Positions 22,102-29,500 of a stretch of 32,212 nt of DNA are shown here, piece by piece. A program made the translations under genes and the position numbers. The notes under the pieces are model-generated. The model saw only the letters and a list, made by a program, of their open reading frames with translations. It was not told the DNA's origin and searched no databases. The DNA is taken from IMG/VR virus record IMGVR_UViG_3300049893_001099, positions 1 through 32,212 of that record; one strand, 5' to 3'. Each line of letters starts with the position of its first letter. Position 1 is the first letter of the stretch. The stretch comes from a virus.

Positions 22102-22455
22102 TTAGTCTTCCGATTGGTTGACTTGGGCATGCCCCCGTAGAGTGCGACGTGGATTCGTAATACGATTCCTATCTTCTCTCTTACTATTATAACACACGCG
22201 CAGGTGACTGTGTAAAGTGCGTAGTTCATAAACCTGTCCTGCAACACCACGAGCGTCTTCGATACGGTGTGCAAGGAATGCTTCGAAGCATTGCTTCACC
22301 AACGCTTGCTCACGATCTTCAAGATAATTCAGCATCGCAGGATTCTGATATACACGGGACAGCATCGTCCTGCGCGTATCATCAGTAAGTGATGTTCGCA
22401 TAGGTAATTCTTGGTCAAGGAGTTTCAGGAGTAGTTTTATGAGTAGTTTTCTCAT
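22102..22455 (-). CDS. Small helical protein coupled to the chaperonin (117 aa)
   Basis: Unrecognised. Starts by a 4-nt ATGA overlap with the chaperonin stop, so translation is probably coupled. N-terminal amphipathic Leu/Lys helix (MRKLLIKLLLKLLDQELPMR), a central helical region with RRTMLSRVYQNPAMLNYLED and DREQALVKQCFEAFLAHRIE, and a basic Arg/Asn-rich C-terminus. The tight coupling makes a role with the chaperonin or at the portal/scaffold stage possible. It shows none of the co-chaperonin GroES features (no mobile-loop GGIVL or beta-barrel pattern). An internal promoter candidate lies at 22186-22216. Confidence 0.7.
   Translation of the reverse strand: MRKLLIKLLLKLLDQELPMRTSLTDDTRRTMLSRVYQNPAMLNYLEDREQALVKQCFEAFLAHRIEDARGVAGQVYELRTLHSHLRVCYNSKREDRNRITNPRRTLRGHAQVNQSED
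22186..22216 (-). promoter_or_regulatory. Promoter candidate for scaffold/decoration/capsid genes
   Basis: Minus strand: TTACAC (22210-22215), 18-bp spacer, extended -10 TGTTATAAT (hexamer 22186-22191). Lies inside the 117-aa gene. Predicted +1 near 22179, leader about 107 nt to the scaffold gene. It would allow high expression of capsid genes independently of the chaperonin. Confidence 0.45.
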
Positions 22456-24005
22456 CCGAGATTTAATTTACGTGCGAGGTCATCAACGAGGTCGTGTTCC
22501 GCTGAAATTATAACGCCTTCCATAGTGGTGAGGATTTTTACGACAGCCACCGCGTTCTCTATCGCACACTTATTCGTCCAGTAGGAATCACGTACATTTG
22601 CTTCGTCAATGAGGAGATTACCCCCTGCGTTTTGCTGTACCCGATTATAGATTACCGAAAGTGCTCTACCAAGGTACGAATCTGCTGGTAATTTATCGGC
22701 CACACGCTTGAGCGATACACCACCACCTGCGGTAGTCCCATACTGAAGTGCTGATTTACAACTATTCACCGCATCCTCTACCTTCTTTTTCAAGTAGTAT
22801 CGGTCTACCGCAGTCTTAGCATCCACGTAGAACGTCGCTACACCCCCCTGAAGCCCAGCTGCACGTCGTAAAATGAGGTCACGGTTTAGTGATTCCTGTT
22901 CTGTCTCTGCAAGTTTCTGTAATTCTGCAACACGGAGAGATACACGTCCTGAATCTATCCCTGCACCACCCGTAAAAGATGTTTGTGAAGGTCCTGCAAT
23001 CACTTTTTTCGCGTATCCTGCATCTTTAAACGTGAGTTGTGATGCTTTTTCCCCTGTTTTTGGGTGAGTATCCACATACCGAGCATTGACAAATTCCGCA
23101 ATGTCCATCATTTCCTCGTCTTTTAGACCATTTGCGTTAAGAAGCACAATAGGAAAGCCAACCTGCTTCGAAACCGCCACCACTTGTGCGGTAAACGGTA
23201 CTGAAAAGCTCTTGCCAATGATAATAAGTGGCTGTGGTCGTGATTTATCGTTCTTTTTCGCATCAATCATCGTGTTGAAAAACGTAGAAAGATCCGAATA
23301 CGCCTCAAAAACATGATTTACCACAAGGATAAGTGGGTCTTCAAGCGTAGTTTCCTTCCGAGTCACGTTCGTGAACATCGCTGGTGTCTCAATCTTGAGT
23401 GGCATGTGAATTCCAGGGACAACTTTTGCTGAGATAGTGCCATTGAAACCTTCCTCCAATGGTGTATTGCTGTTATAACCAATCGAATGGATGGTTTCTG
23501 CAATAAGTCGTGAGGATGGGTGGTTTTCCATCGCGGTTTTTGCTACTTTTTCCAGTTCGTCCACCGTAACTACCTCTACGCGCTCCTGATCCATGAGGTC
23601 GAGCGCTTGTGCAAGCTCGCTTTCGAGTTGTGCTTTAATATCCATCACCGTTTTTCCTAGCCCAGGCATCTCAATAGGGGATACATCTGCGAGGACGAGT
23701 GGGGTGAGGGTGGTTGCGAGTAGTGTTGCTGTTGTGGTTCCATCACCCGCATCCTGATCCTGTCTGAGGGCGACTTCCTCATACGCTGCAGCGATGTGGT
23801 TTTCCCTAGGATCTTCAAACTGTATCTCGCGTAGGATTGATACGCCGTCATTCGTAATCCCTTCTTCCGTCATGTAGTTCCTACCACCAGGGCCAAGTGT
23901 ATTTCCTACCCTCATCGAAATCTGGCGGGCAACATTGTTTACTAAATTCCGTGTTTGGTCAGTGTCGTTTGCGGCAGAGCCGTCTGCATATAATTTCTTT
24001 TTCAT
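22452..24005 (-). CDS. groEL-like: Phage-encoded chaperonin, GroEL-type (Hsp60)
   Basis: 517 aa, slightly shorter than bacterial GroEL (about 548). The equatorial ATPase motifs are intact: TLGPGGRN (residues 36-43), TNDGVSI with D53, AGDGTTTAT with D88 (86-94), GGVA (387-390), KVEDAV with D411, and TTAGGGVSL (424-432). D53, D88 and D411 correspond to E. coli D52, D87 and D398, so ATP binding and hydrolysis should be retained. The apical domain (about 185-375) is strongly divergent, and there is no GGM-repeat tail (it ends ARKLNLG). No GroES partner is visible nearby. Location between large terminase and head genes suggests folding of a virion protein such as the capsid or portal. A strong promoter (TTGCAT-17 bp-TATAAT) places +1 on the A of the ATG: apparently leaderless, separately transcribed. 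Confidence 0.93.
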   Translation of the reverse strand: MKKKLYADGSAANDTDQTRNLVNNVARQISMRVGNTLGPGGRNYMTEEGITNDGVSILREIQFEDPRENHIAAAYEEVALRQDQDAGDGTTTATLLATTLTPLVLADVSPIEMPGLGKTVMDIKAQLESELAQALDLMDQERVEVVTVDELEKVAKTAMENHPSSRLIAETIHSIGYNSNTPLEEGFNGTISAKVVPGIHMPLKIETPAMFTNVTRKETTLEDPLILVVNHVFEAYSDLSTFFNTMIDAKKNDKSRPQPLIIIGKSFSVPFTAQVVAVSKQVGFPIVLLNANGLKDEEMMDIAEFVNARYVDTHPKTGEKASQLTFKDAGYAKKVIAGPSQTSFTGGAGIDSGRVSLRVAELQKLAETEQESLNRDLILRRAAGLQGGVATFYVDAKTAVDRYYLKKKVEDAVNSCKSALQYGTTAGGGVSLKRVADKLPADSYLGRALSVIYNRVQQNAGGNLLIDEANVRDSYWTNKCAIENAVAVVKILTTMEGVIISAEHDLVDDLARKLNLG

Positions 24006-24057: not shown

Positions 24058-25302
24058 TTACACTACAAATTTCCTATCTCGCTTTGCCTTGGTTCCATAG
24101 GGGTGCTGTAACATTTTCTTTCGTTTCATAGCCAATTGCCATCTGCGGGTAGCCTTCTGTTCTTCAGTGAGTGGCATCACGAGCTTCGGGAGAGATGTTA
24201 TTCCGTACCTAATCGCATCCATCGAATGTGAATATTCATGCTCTGGAATATTTAATACCTTTCCATTTTTATCCACCTCCCACAGATAATTTCGATACTC
24301 CTTAATCACATTCGTAGACCTTTTTGTTACCGATATCTGCTGATCCTGTACCAAATCGATCCCTTGTTTGACACTATCCTTCCCTTTTACCGTTGCCACA
24401 ATAGGAATACCATACAGTGCAATATCGTCGATAGACTTTGGTTCCGCACTATCGGCCACCGTGAGTACCAAATTCTCCTGGTTCTGTAAAACGCCAGCAA
24501 TCTGTGAATTTTGCATCCCTTTTTGGTATAAAATCTCGTCTAAGATGATCCCACCGAGATGCTGGTAGATTGCTACAATCGCGGTGGGGTCGTTGGTGTA
24601 TCCGAAGTCAAGACCAAAACGCATGAGCTTCGCTTCATGCGGAATTTCATCAATAATTTTCCAATTTGTGTAGATTTTTCCATCGACTTCACCAAGTTGG
24701 CCCAAGCCATACACCTGCCACCATGATTTACGATCTTTACGCTGTTCAATGGAGTCCACAATGGTTTTTTCCAAGGCCTCGTTATCGAGGTACGTAATAA
24801 TTATGTGGTCAACATCGTCACGATGTGGCTTAACCTCCGTATAAAACCAAAATTCTGTCGTTGGGTTCCAGTCGAGGTAGATACATTCTCGTGTACGCAC
24901 CTCGAGCTGTTCAAATGTTTCAAACGCCAAGTTGTTACACTCGTTCATAAAGAGCCGGTCACGACGTGGACCACGGACTTTTGATGCTTGATCGGCACCA
25001 AAGAACTCAATGATCGATCCGCTCTCAAACGTGTAGATTGAATCGGTTTTATTCCACCGATTATCGTCATAATAGCCATGCGTATCCATGATATTCAGGA
25101 AATCTCGCATACAGCCCTTACGTAAGTGCGGAAGTGATTCGGAAACCACTGAGGTTACTGTTGGGGTCTTATCGGTTTGTGCTTTGTGGATAAGTAATTG
25201 GAGAATCGAGATTGATTTACCAGCGGAGGTTCCACCTTGGATTGCTCGGATACGTTTTTGGAGTTGGGCTACTTTTTTTGTAGCGGTAGTGATGCTGAAC
25301 AT
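24058..25302 (-). CDS. terL: Terminase large subunit (packaging ATPase-nuclease)
   Basis: 414 aa. Walker A GGTSAGKS (residues 23-30); Walker B with catalytic Glu in RLFMNECNN (E121); coupling motif LDWNPT (143-148); RNase H-like nuclease acidic residues in GLDFGYTNDPTAIV (D232), VADSAEP (D284) and HSMDAIRYG (D362). This is the complete motor-plus-nuclease layout of TerL: it drives DNA into the procapsid and cuts concatemers. Slightly short but with all motifs. The ATG is preceded by TGC-TATACT (extended -10) at exactly the distance that makes the start codon +1, so this may be a leaderless transcript. Separated from the small terminase by a nuclease gene and a 411-bp non-coding island. Confidence 0.95.
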   Translation of the reverse strand: MFSITTATKKVAQLQKRIRAIQGGTSAGKSISILQLLIHKAQTDKTPTVTSVVSESLPHLRKGCMRDFLNIMDTHGYYDDNRWNKTDSIYTFESGSIIEFFGADQASKVRGPRRDRLFMNECNNLAFETFEQLEVRTRECIYLDWNPTTEFWFYTEVKPHRDDVDHIIITYLDNEALEKTIVDSIEQRKDRKSWWQVYGLGQLGEVDGKIYTNWKIIDEIPHEAKLMRFGLDFGYTNDPTAIVAIYQHLGGIILDEILYQKGMQNSQIAGVLQNQENLVLTVADSAEPKSIDDIALYGIPIVATVKGKDSVKQGIDLVQDQQISVTKRSTNVIKEYRNYLWEVDKNGKVLNIPEHEYSHSMDAIRYGITSLPKLVMPLTEEQKATRRWQLAMKRKKMLQHPYGTKAKRDRKFVV

Positions 25303-27150: not shown

Positions 27151-27157
27151 AACCCAC

Positions 27158-27499
27158 TGCCACACCTCTAAACGGCTCAGCTGAGCCGTTTTTTCATTCC
27201 TGCCACACCTCTGCCATACCTCCACACCCGAGGTGTGGCACGATTATACGGCTCTGTGTAGCCATAAAAGTGGGTCGTGCCACACCTACCACACCTACCA
27301 CACCTATTTTATACTCTTCTGGACTAAAAAATAAGAAACTATATATATACATACTTTTCTATTTTTTACTCTATACCTATACAATATATAAAAAGGTATG
27401 GTTAGGTATGGTATATATAGAAAATAGGGCTATACTGAGCCACCAAAAGTGTGCCACACCTCCTGCCATACCTCACCATACCTCATCCGAGGTGTGGCA
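27158..27499. repeat. Iteron-like cluster of TGCCAYACCTC motifs around an A+T-rich core (origin-like)
   Basis: Forward copies: 27158, 27201, 27212, 27278, 27452, 27464 (full or one-mismatch TGCCAYACCTC/A), shorter CCAYACCTM at 27289, 27298, 27476, and a degenerate CCACACCC at 27222. Reverse copies: GAGGTGTGGCA at 27230-27240 and 27489-27499, AGGTATGG at 27394 and 27404. Two similar modules (27201-27240 and 27452-27499), each direct-direct-inverted, flank an A+T-rich stretch (about 27301-27450). This is how phage and plasmid origins or initiator/partition sites look. No initiator gene is in the window. The overlapping 132-codon plus frame (27108-27506) is low-complexity and overlaps the regulator gene, so I do not call it. 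Confidence 0.65.
27171..27194 (+). terminator. Rho-independent terminator after the regulator gene
   Basis: AACGGCTC-AGCT-GAGCCGTT stem-loop (8-bp, G+C-rich) followed by TTTT. The most canonical intrinsic terminator in the window; insulates the downstream repeat region. Confidence 0.85.
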
Positions 27500-27506
27500 G
27501 CTATAA

Positions 27507-27725
27507 ACTCAAAAACAAAACAAGCAAAAAGTCAATAGTTATAAAACCGCTTAACCACGCCATCATTTAGCAACTGGGGATAACTCCATCGACACGCCTT
27601 GCAAGTGCTACGCAAAGGTATATACTATACATGTACAAGAACATACATATACAAGTAGATACAATTATAAAGAATAGTATATACAAAATACAATCAAAGG
27701 TATATACTACTAATCAAATAAAAAC
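27507..27725 (+). promoter_or_regulatory. Leader region with two promoter candidates for the early gene block
   Basis: About 220 bp with no gene. CAAAGGTATATACTA occurs twice (27613-27627 and 27695-27709), with an inverted AGTATATAC at 27676-27684. The first copy is part of a promoter TTGCAA (27599-27604)-16 bp-TATACT (27621-27626). The second gives a TATACT at 27703-27708, 17 nt before the next ATG, with a weak TATACA -35. The repeats around both -10 boxes could be sites for a common regulator. Confidence 0.5.
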
Positions 27726-28549: not shown

Positions 28550-28723
28550 ATGAAAACATATCGAGTATACTTTGAAGAAGCGTTTGACGTACTTATTGAG
28601 GCAGATAATACCGAAAAAGCACGTACCAAACTCTTTGCAGGAGACTATGAAGGAACACCAAATCACCGCGAGATAACTTGTGTTGAGGTGGTGGAACTAC
28701 AGGATGGGAAGGAGTTAGAATAA
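28550..28723 (+). CDS. Small acidic protein, 57 aa
   Basis: MKTYRVYFEEAFDVLIEADN, then TEKARTKLFAGDYEGTPNHR and EITCVEVVELQDGKELE. A beta-alpha-beta pattern with a central ADNTEKARTKLF segment is typical of many small phage proteins of the same general fold (YxVxxExxxxVxVxAxxxxEAxxxA). 8 nt after the previous stop. Function unknown. Confidence 0.7.
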   Translation: MKTYRVYFEEAFDVLIEADNTEKARTKLFAGDYEGTPNHREITCVEVVELQDGKELE

Positions 28724-28786
28724 ATTATTATAGTACGCAGATAGCATCATCATACAGTCTCTCTCACACAGTACCTTTCAAATACC

Positions 28787-28817
28787 ACAGCTACGGGCGA
28801 CACTTACGTGTAACTGT
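28787..28817 (+). repeat. Hairpin C (degenerate copy) with CACTTACG loop
   Basis: Arms ACAG-c-TAC (28787-28794) and GTA-a-CTGT (28810-28817), 7 pairs with one mismatch. Loop contains CACTTACG. Confidence 0.4.
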
Positions 28818-28850
28818 ACGGGCATCGGTATACCAGCGAGAAGTCACGAA

Positions 28851-28881
28851 TGTACGCATATCACTTGCGAACGCGCGTACA
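28851..28881 (+). repeat. Hairpin A with ATATCACTTGCGAA loop
   Basis: Arms TGTACGC (28851-28857) and GCGTACA (28875-28881), perfect 7-bp stem. The 17-nt loop begins with the 14-nt direct repeat ATATCACTTGCGAA (28858-28871). Confidence 0.55.
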
Positions 28882-28906
28882 GACTACAGCGGAGAGGACG
28901 CGAAGG

Positions 28907-28935
28907 GCACGTATATCACTTGCGAAGCTACGTGC
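28907..28935 (+). repeat. Hairpin B with TATCACTTGCGAA loop
   Basis: Arms GCACGTA (28907-28913) and TACGTGC (28929-28935), perfect 7-bp stem. The second copy of ATATCACTTGCGAA is at 28913-28926. Aligned with hairpin A, two stem positions differ in a compensating way (T-A to C-G, and C-G to T-A). Confidence 0.55.
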
Positions 28936-29155
28936 AGGGTACTGTGTGGGGGATGCTGTGGAGGCAGAACCCGAATATGAACGGGGCGAGCGGACGCGAA
29001 TACAGCCGTGCCCGCCGTCCTGTTCAGCCCACAGTGTGCGAGCGAACGTACTCTGTGTGCTGGACGGGAACAGCGCGGACGTACTTTCTACAGGAAGGAG
29101 AAGTGTTGAATGTGCGGACGAAGTTGATTAGTAGAGTAGCAATAAAATTATATTT

Positions 29156-29500
29156 ATGGGGATGCGCAGAAACATCGCTCTCAATTATGGAGCGAACGAA
29201 GAGAAGAATCGAACGGACAAAATCTACCTATACACCCACTGGGGTGCGGAGGGATTAGAAGAGTCACTAGCAAAATCGCTAGACCGTGGACGCGGACGAT
29301 GGACAGACCCATCGTACCTTTCACGAATCATATTCACCGATATGACGAAAGATGTTGGTGATGAACTTACAGGATATGGACTTGCGCCATACGAAGTTGA
29401 CCCTGAGTTTGACACACTCGAAGTTGACCTCGAAAAGCAGACCGTGAACGGAGTGGGGTACGAAGCATTTATCAGTAACCCGCAGATGTTTGCAATATGA
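29156..29500 (+). CDS. Conserved small phage protein (IYLYTHWGAEGL type), 114 aa
   Basis: MGMRRNIALNYGANEEKNRT and KIYLYTHWGAEGLEESLAKS, then RWTDPSYLSRIIFTDMTKD. The pattern (N)xxI...KIYLYxHWgg..l...L...L.......R..D..YL.RiifxxM..d..gelTGyGi matches small proteins recurrent in phage early regions; function unknown. The C-terminal LEVDLEKQTVNGVGYEAFIS is also typical. The start at 29156 follows an A+T-rich stretch; an alternative ATG is two codons downstream. The stop overlaps the next start (ATGA). Confidence 0.8.
   Translation: MGMRRNIALNYGANEEKNRTDKIYLYTHWGAEGLEESLAKSLDRGRGRWTDPSYLSRIIFTDMTKDVGDELTGYGLAPYEVDPEFDTLEVDLEKQTVNGVGYEAFISNPQMFAI

What the first reader, a model, noticed from the sequence alone, without database searches (positions are those of the whole stretch)
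28780..28940. Three hairpins sharing a CACTTRCG loop, two of them with compensatory stem changes, in a gene-free gap
Seen: hairpins A and B carry the identical 14-nt ATATCACTTGCGAA on 7-bp stems. Between them, a T-A pair is replaced by C-G and a C-G pair by T-A, keeping the stem. A degenerate third hairpin upstream has CACTTACG in its loop. The repeats fall in different codon frames, so protein selection does not explain them. Inference: a repeated RNA (or single-stranded DNA) structural unit, such as a phage non-coding RNA, RNA-protein binding array or replication/packaging signal.
Basis: seen in the sequence. Interest (0 to 1): 0.66.

Follow-up and report, generated by a model that had tools for sequence, protein, structure and literature searches.

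The report
Orphan structured RNA candidate in phage
A 430-base gene-free gap in an uncultured phage genome probably encodes a folded RNA with two look-alike hairpins that share the same 14-base loop, but no relative of it could be found, so its structure and job rest on this one sequence.

Summary
Hairpins A (28851-28881) and B (28907-28935) have 7-bp Watson-Crick stems around an identical ATATCACTTGCGAA, 55 nt apart. In register, two of the six shared pairs differ by two-sided changes (T-A/C-G and C-G/T-A). The third hairpin is weak: CACTTACG recurs, but similarity to A/B is at chance level and the fold puts half of it in a stem.

A and B lie inside a 24-bp helix (28753-28777/28936-28960) with five G-U pairs, followed by four more predicted hairpins. 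The gap folds better than shuffles as + strand RNA (z -4.3), not as the - strand (-0.24), and less as DNA. It has no codon signal or 3-base periodicity. This favours a + strand non-coding RNA over a gene or DNA site.

Limits: no Rfam match, no homolog in phages, plasmids, IMG/VR scans, 62 terminase relatives or 28 whole relative records, so the proposed covariation test could not be made. The fold energy is not unique here (rank 8 of 294 windows). An alternative pairing competes with hairpin A.

Best guess: an orphan phage RNA carrying duplicated recognition loops for an RNA-binding partner. Orphan structured phage RNAs are a known kind; function is inferred.

The parts
28724..29155 (+). gene-free gap holding the candidate structured RNA (RNA proper about 28753-29126)
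   Evidence: between the 57-aa ORF 28550-28723 and the 114-aa ORF 29156-29500; no 3-periodicity and codon scores at or below zero; RNA fold z -4.3 on +, -0.24 on -
28753..28777 (+). P1, 5' arm of closing helix (24 bp, one mismatch, five G-U pairs with U on this arm)
   Evidence: inverted repeat I1; pair probability at least 0.67
28936..28960 (+). P1, 3' arm; abuts hairpin B with no unpaired base (possible coaxial stack)
28782..28831 (+). hairpin C (weak): irregular hairpin ending in ACAC-TTAC-GTGT; contains CACTTACG
   Evidence: appears only in the fold with hairpin A enforced; repeat similarity not significant
28851..28881 (+). hairpin A, 7-bp stem TGTACGC/GCGTACA, loop with ATATCACTTGCGAA; can be extended by AGTC/GACT across a 5-nt bulge
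   Evidence: competes with pairing 28814-28820/28876-28882, which the model prefers by 1.3 kcal/mol
28907..28935 (+). hairpin B, 7-bp stem GCACGTA/TACGTGC, loop with ATATCACTTGCGAA
   Evidence: predicted with pair probability at least 0.84
28970..28985 (+). hairpin D (CCCG/CGGG, 8-nt loop AATATGAA)
   Evidence: pair probability 0.98
28986..29018 (+). hairpin E
   Evidence: inner helices probability 0.98-0.99
29019..29068 (+). hairpin F, 20 bp in three helices separated by 1x1 mismatches, loop AGCGAA, three G-U pairs
   Evidence: pair probability 0.97-0.99
29071..29126 (+). hairpin G, irregular
   Evidence: pair probability 0.83-0.97

Best explanation
The gap encodes a + strand non-coding RNA of about 375 nt (28753-29126) made from the early operon of a tailed phage. 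A long P1 helix closes a 5' multi-hairpin domain; a 3' domain of four hairpins follows. The two 31- and 29-nt hairpins arose by a local duplication and kept their loop while their stems drifted with compensation. Selection has therefore probably acted on the loop sequence and on stem pairing. The most likely use is a platform presenting two (perhaps three) copies of one recognition loop to an RNA-binding partner, phage or host, either titrating it in trans or recruiting it to the transcript in cis. Shown here: repeat, compensated stems, strand-specific folding, lack of coding signal. Inferred: transcription, in-vivo fold, partner, function.
For: Exact 14-mer repeat (5 of 5000 shuffles) with two compensated pairs (about 1.2% by chance). 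Words of 5-7 nt are repeated in the gap more often than in any of 500 shuffles. RNA z -4.3 on + and -0.24 on -; DNA z only -2.15 and -0.89. Five G-U pairs in P1 and three in hairpin F would be A-C mismatches on the other strand. No 3-periodicity (0.96, against 2.2 or more in 90% of structural-gene windows) and codon scores at or below zero in all six frames, no protein homolog. GC content rises to 0.56-0.60 in the gap, with AT-rich flanks.
Against: No homolog anywhere searched, so no phylogenetic covariation. The fold energy ranks only 8th of 294 windows of equal size, and coding windows reach -6. In 200-nt windows the A/B part alone shows nothing (z +0.48 at 28801). The thermodynamic model slightly prefers an alternative pairing over hairpin A. 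No sigma-70-like promoter or terminator frames the RNA, so it may be only part of a longer mRNA.
Confidence: 0.4

Rival explanations
1. A cis-acting leader or intercistronic element of the early operon: the nascent RNA's hairpins act on transcription (nut/put-like antitermination), processing or translation of the 29156 gene rather than as a free RNA.
For: The gap lies within a run of + strand genes with no recognised promoter before it or terminator after it; it directly precedes the 29156 gene.
Against: 432 nt and at least six helices is long for a nut or put site (own knowledge). The 29156 homolog in L002 (58% identical) has no such gap upstream. No boxA/boxB consensus was tested.
Confidence: 0.25
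2. DNA-level element: paired inverted repeats bound by a replication, packaging or regulatory protein, active as dsDNA or ssDNA.
For: Stems are near-perfect inverted repeats; DNA z of the + strand is -2.15.
Against: Folding is strand-specific and best with RNA parameters; P1 and F rely on G-U pairs; the conserved part is the asymmetric loop, not the palindromic stem. A better candidate for a DNA-site array exists in this phage at 27157-27500.
Confidence: 0.12
3. Chance or decayed sequence: a diverged tandem duplication (55 nt) in non-coding, GC-rich drifting DNA with no selected structure.
For: Other short-range repeats occur in the window; no homolog; fold energy not extreme for this genome; hairpin A not the preferred pairing.
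Against: Fourteen unchanged bases beside stems changed only in compensated pairs; strand-specific fold of the whole gap; short words repeated beyond all of 500 shuffles.
Confidence: 0.15
4. A small unannotated protein gene in the stop-free + frame 28734-29258, with the RNA structure incidental.
For: A stop-free run that long appears in 2 of 2000 shuffles; a purine-rich Shine-Dalgarno-like stretch lies near 29092-29100.
Against: Codon score -0.20 for the frame and period-3 signal 0.96, both at noise level; no homolog in phages (best E 4), viral contigs or Pfam; it overlaps 29156-29500, a conserved gene, in another frame.
Confidence: 0.05
5. A repeat-mimicking RNA: type III antitoxin repeats or an RNA anti-CRISPR.
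For: Two repeat units at 55-nt spacing in a phage, before a small gene.
Confidence: 0.03

Closest known systems
GOLLD and ROOL RNAs (large structured RNAs of phages and prophages; PMC12286853)
   Same: structured non-coding RNA of unknown function encoded by a phage, many hairpins
   Different: no Rfam match even at E up to 5; about 375 nt against 659 nt (the ROOL solved) and over 800 nt (many GOLLD); no tRNA nearby; only one example known
Csr/Rsm protein-titrating sRNAs such as RsmZ (PMC4005645)
   Same: one RNA presenting several hairpins with the same loop motif on different stems, the way the proposed mechanism would work
   Different: repeated loop is ATATCACTTGCGAA, not A(N)GGAX; no match to an Rfam family; embedded in a multi-helix closed domain
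Type III toxin-antitoxin RNA (ToxI/CptI; PMC5086642)
   Same: tandem RNA repeats upstream of a small gene
   Different: published ToxI examples have 34-36-nt repeats that fold as pseudoknots, followed by a terminator and an endoribonuclease gene; no terminator and no such gene here
RNA anti-CRISPRs (Racr; PMC10651486)
   Same: phage-encoded small RNA with repeat-like hairpins
   Different: no link to a CRISPR repeat was found

Membership tests
GOLLD / ROOL / HEARO / any Rfam 15 family | match to the family covariance model | tested here: not met
   no hit at gathering over the window and none at E up to 5 over 28700-29200
GOLLD / ROOL | neighbouring tRNA genes (frequent, not universal) | tested here: not met
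   no tRNA in the window
Structured non-coding RNA (general) | compensatory change preserving helices across homologs | tested here: inconclusive
   two compensated pairs between internal copies A and B; no homologs found
Structured non-coding RNA (general) | fold better than dinucleotide shuffles, strand-specific | tested here: met
   z -4.3 (+), -0.24 (-); not unique in this genome
Structured non-coding RNA (general) | no protein-coding signal | tested here: met
   period-3 0.96, codon scores at or below zero; one frame is stop-free
Structured non-coding RNA (general) | transcribed as a discrete RNA | not testable with these tools
   no RNA-seq; no consensus promoter or terminator
Type III toxin-antitoxin | ToxN-type toxin gene downstream | tested here: not met
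   29156-29500 has no Pfam match and only an unknown PHROG
Csr/Rsm-type sponge RNA | A(N)GGAX in several hairpin loops | tested here: not met
   the repeated loop is ATATCACTTGCGAA, without GGA
RNA anti-CRISPR | similarity to a CRISPR repeat of the host | tested here: inconclusive

The most novel reading that the evidence does not exclude
A new class of phage regulatory RNA: a P1-closed domain that displays duplicated identical recognition loops to capture a host or phage protein, or to pair with a target RNA, unrelated to any described family.
Probability: 0.15. Interest if true: 0.6.

Novelty: new member of a known kind. Interest (0 to 1): 0.36.

Why it matters
Structured RNAs such as GOLLD and ROOL show that phages encode large RNAs of unknown function. 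An internal duplication with a frozen loop and compensated stems hints at function without needing relatives and names the bases to test. As a single orphan in an uncultured phage it does not yet open a wider question.

Tried and rejected
Pattern scans of IMG/VR for paired motifs gave 0 hits and 9 unrelated hits. The exception (L327) is a single copy with no second motif nearby. blastn against phages and plasmids gave only chance pieces. The 62 terminase relatives do not share the early genes around the RNA, and 28 whole records gave no convincing hit (best match 19 nt). A model-free search for paired hairpins with equal loops in relatives found no convincing counterpart. Protein reading of the stop-free frame: rejected. 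A gap-by-gap fold scan of relatives timed out part-way. A covariance model was not built because there was no second sequence to train on.

Full report
What is there. The window is a 32-kb virus record of IMG/VR from a tailed phage: terminase large subunit at 24058-25302, a groEL homolog at 22452-24005 and HNH endonucleases. Structural genes run leftward and early genes rightward from about 26.97 kb. The finding lies in a 432-nt gap, 28724-29155, between a 57-aa and a 114-aa + strand ORF.

The observation. The two hairpins are exact as described: ATATCACTTGCGAA at 28858 and 28913, stems TGTACGC/GCGTACA and GCACGTA/TACGTGC. Aligned on the loop, the copies share six pairs. Four are unchanged and two are changed on both sides (C-G vs T-A, T-A vs C-G). 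In simulation, four random changes on six pairs leave all pairs intact in 1.2% of cases, and a repeat of at least 14 nt arises in 5 of 5000 shuffles of the gap. The ungapped similarity extends over 48 nt at 71%, which reads as an old tandem duplication. The third hairpin is doubtful: its similarity is not significant, and the predicted fold puts half of CACTTACG into a stem.

A 27-nt inverted repeat (28754-28780 with 28933-28959) forms P1, 24 bp with one mismatch and five G-U pairs, enclosing the hairpins. Four further hairpins (28970-29126) follow, with pair probabilities mostly above 0.9. The gap folds at z -4.3 on the + strand and -0.24 on the - strand with RNA parameters, and -2.15 and -0.89 with DNA parameters. 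Strand specificity comes in part from G-U pairs placed for the + strand, which is evidence for RNA and against a DNA site.

Cautions. With 432-nt windows over the whole record the gap ranks 8 of 294, and some coding windows are more extreme. In 200-nt windows the A/B half is not unusual, partly because such windows cut P1. The model slightly prefers 28814-28820 pairing with 28876-28882 over hairpin A (-156.1 against -154.8 kcal/mol). Hence the fold of the 5' half is uncertain even if the RNA is real.

Not a protein gene. Period-3 signal is 0.96 (genes mostly above 2) and codon scores of all six frames are at or below zero. One + frame is stop-free over 28734-29258, unusual at 2 in 2000 shuffles, but it has no homolog and overlaps the conserved 29156 gene.

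No relatives. Rfam: none at gathering over the window or at E up to 5 over the gap. Phages and plasmids: none. IMG/VR: pattern scans and a peptide-pattern scan gave only chance matches. The terminase relatives (mostly 48-74% identical) do not share these early genes. The nearest contig (L004) begins inside the terminase gene, before the early region. In the viral contigs the flanking genes each had a single relative: L002, where no such gap precedes the 29156 homolog, and L003, where a 612-nt strongly folded gap (z -8.1) stands at a similar place but without sequence similarity.

Mechanism. The loop stayed fixed while the stems drifted in compensated fashion, which is what a loop-recognising partner would select. 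I therefore favour a + strand RNA with duplicated recognition loops, titrating or recruiting a protein (confidence 0.4 for the whole statement; about 0.65 for 'structured non-coding RNA' alone, counting the cis rival). A cis-acting operon element is the main rival, since no promoter or terminator frames the RNA.

Place among known things. It would work like Csr/Rsm sponge RNAs in the sense of repeated loops (PMC4005645), and resembles GOLLD and ROOL in being a phage RNA of unknown function (PMC12286853), but it is a member of neither by the tests made. It is best filed as another candidate orphan structured phage RNA.

Noticed in passing
window 27157-27500: Ten copies (up to 2 mismatches) of GAGGTGTGGCAG in both orientations in the divergent intergenic region; 18 in the whole window against 2.1 expected. 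Looks like iterons or operators of a replication origin or early control region.
   Followed up: partly
window 27613-27627 and 27695-27709: Identical 15-mer CAAAGGTATATACTA, 82 nt apart, upstream of the early + strand genes; promoter-like (-10-like TATACT).
   Followed up: partly
window 22452-24005: groEL/chaperonin homolog (phrog_5725, E 2e-66) between the terminase and the structural genes.
   Followed up: no
L003 4897-5508: 612-nt gap downstream of the homolog of the 27876-28541 gene, fold z -8.1 as RNA, with several long hairpins, two sharing CTACYATTGCGTYTTA; no Rfam match at gathering. A second orphan structured-RNA candidate at a comparable position.
   Followed up: partly
L006 9137-9591: Gap just upstream of the large terminase gene folding far better than shuffles on both strands (z -6.3 and -8.1, 20 shuffles).
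   Followed up: no
window 28734-29258: Stop-free + frame of about 174 codons through the RNA, longer than in all but 2 of 2000 shuffles, although without coding signal.
   Followed up: yes
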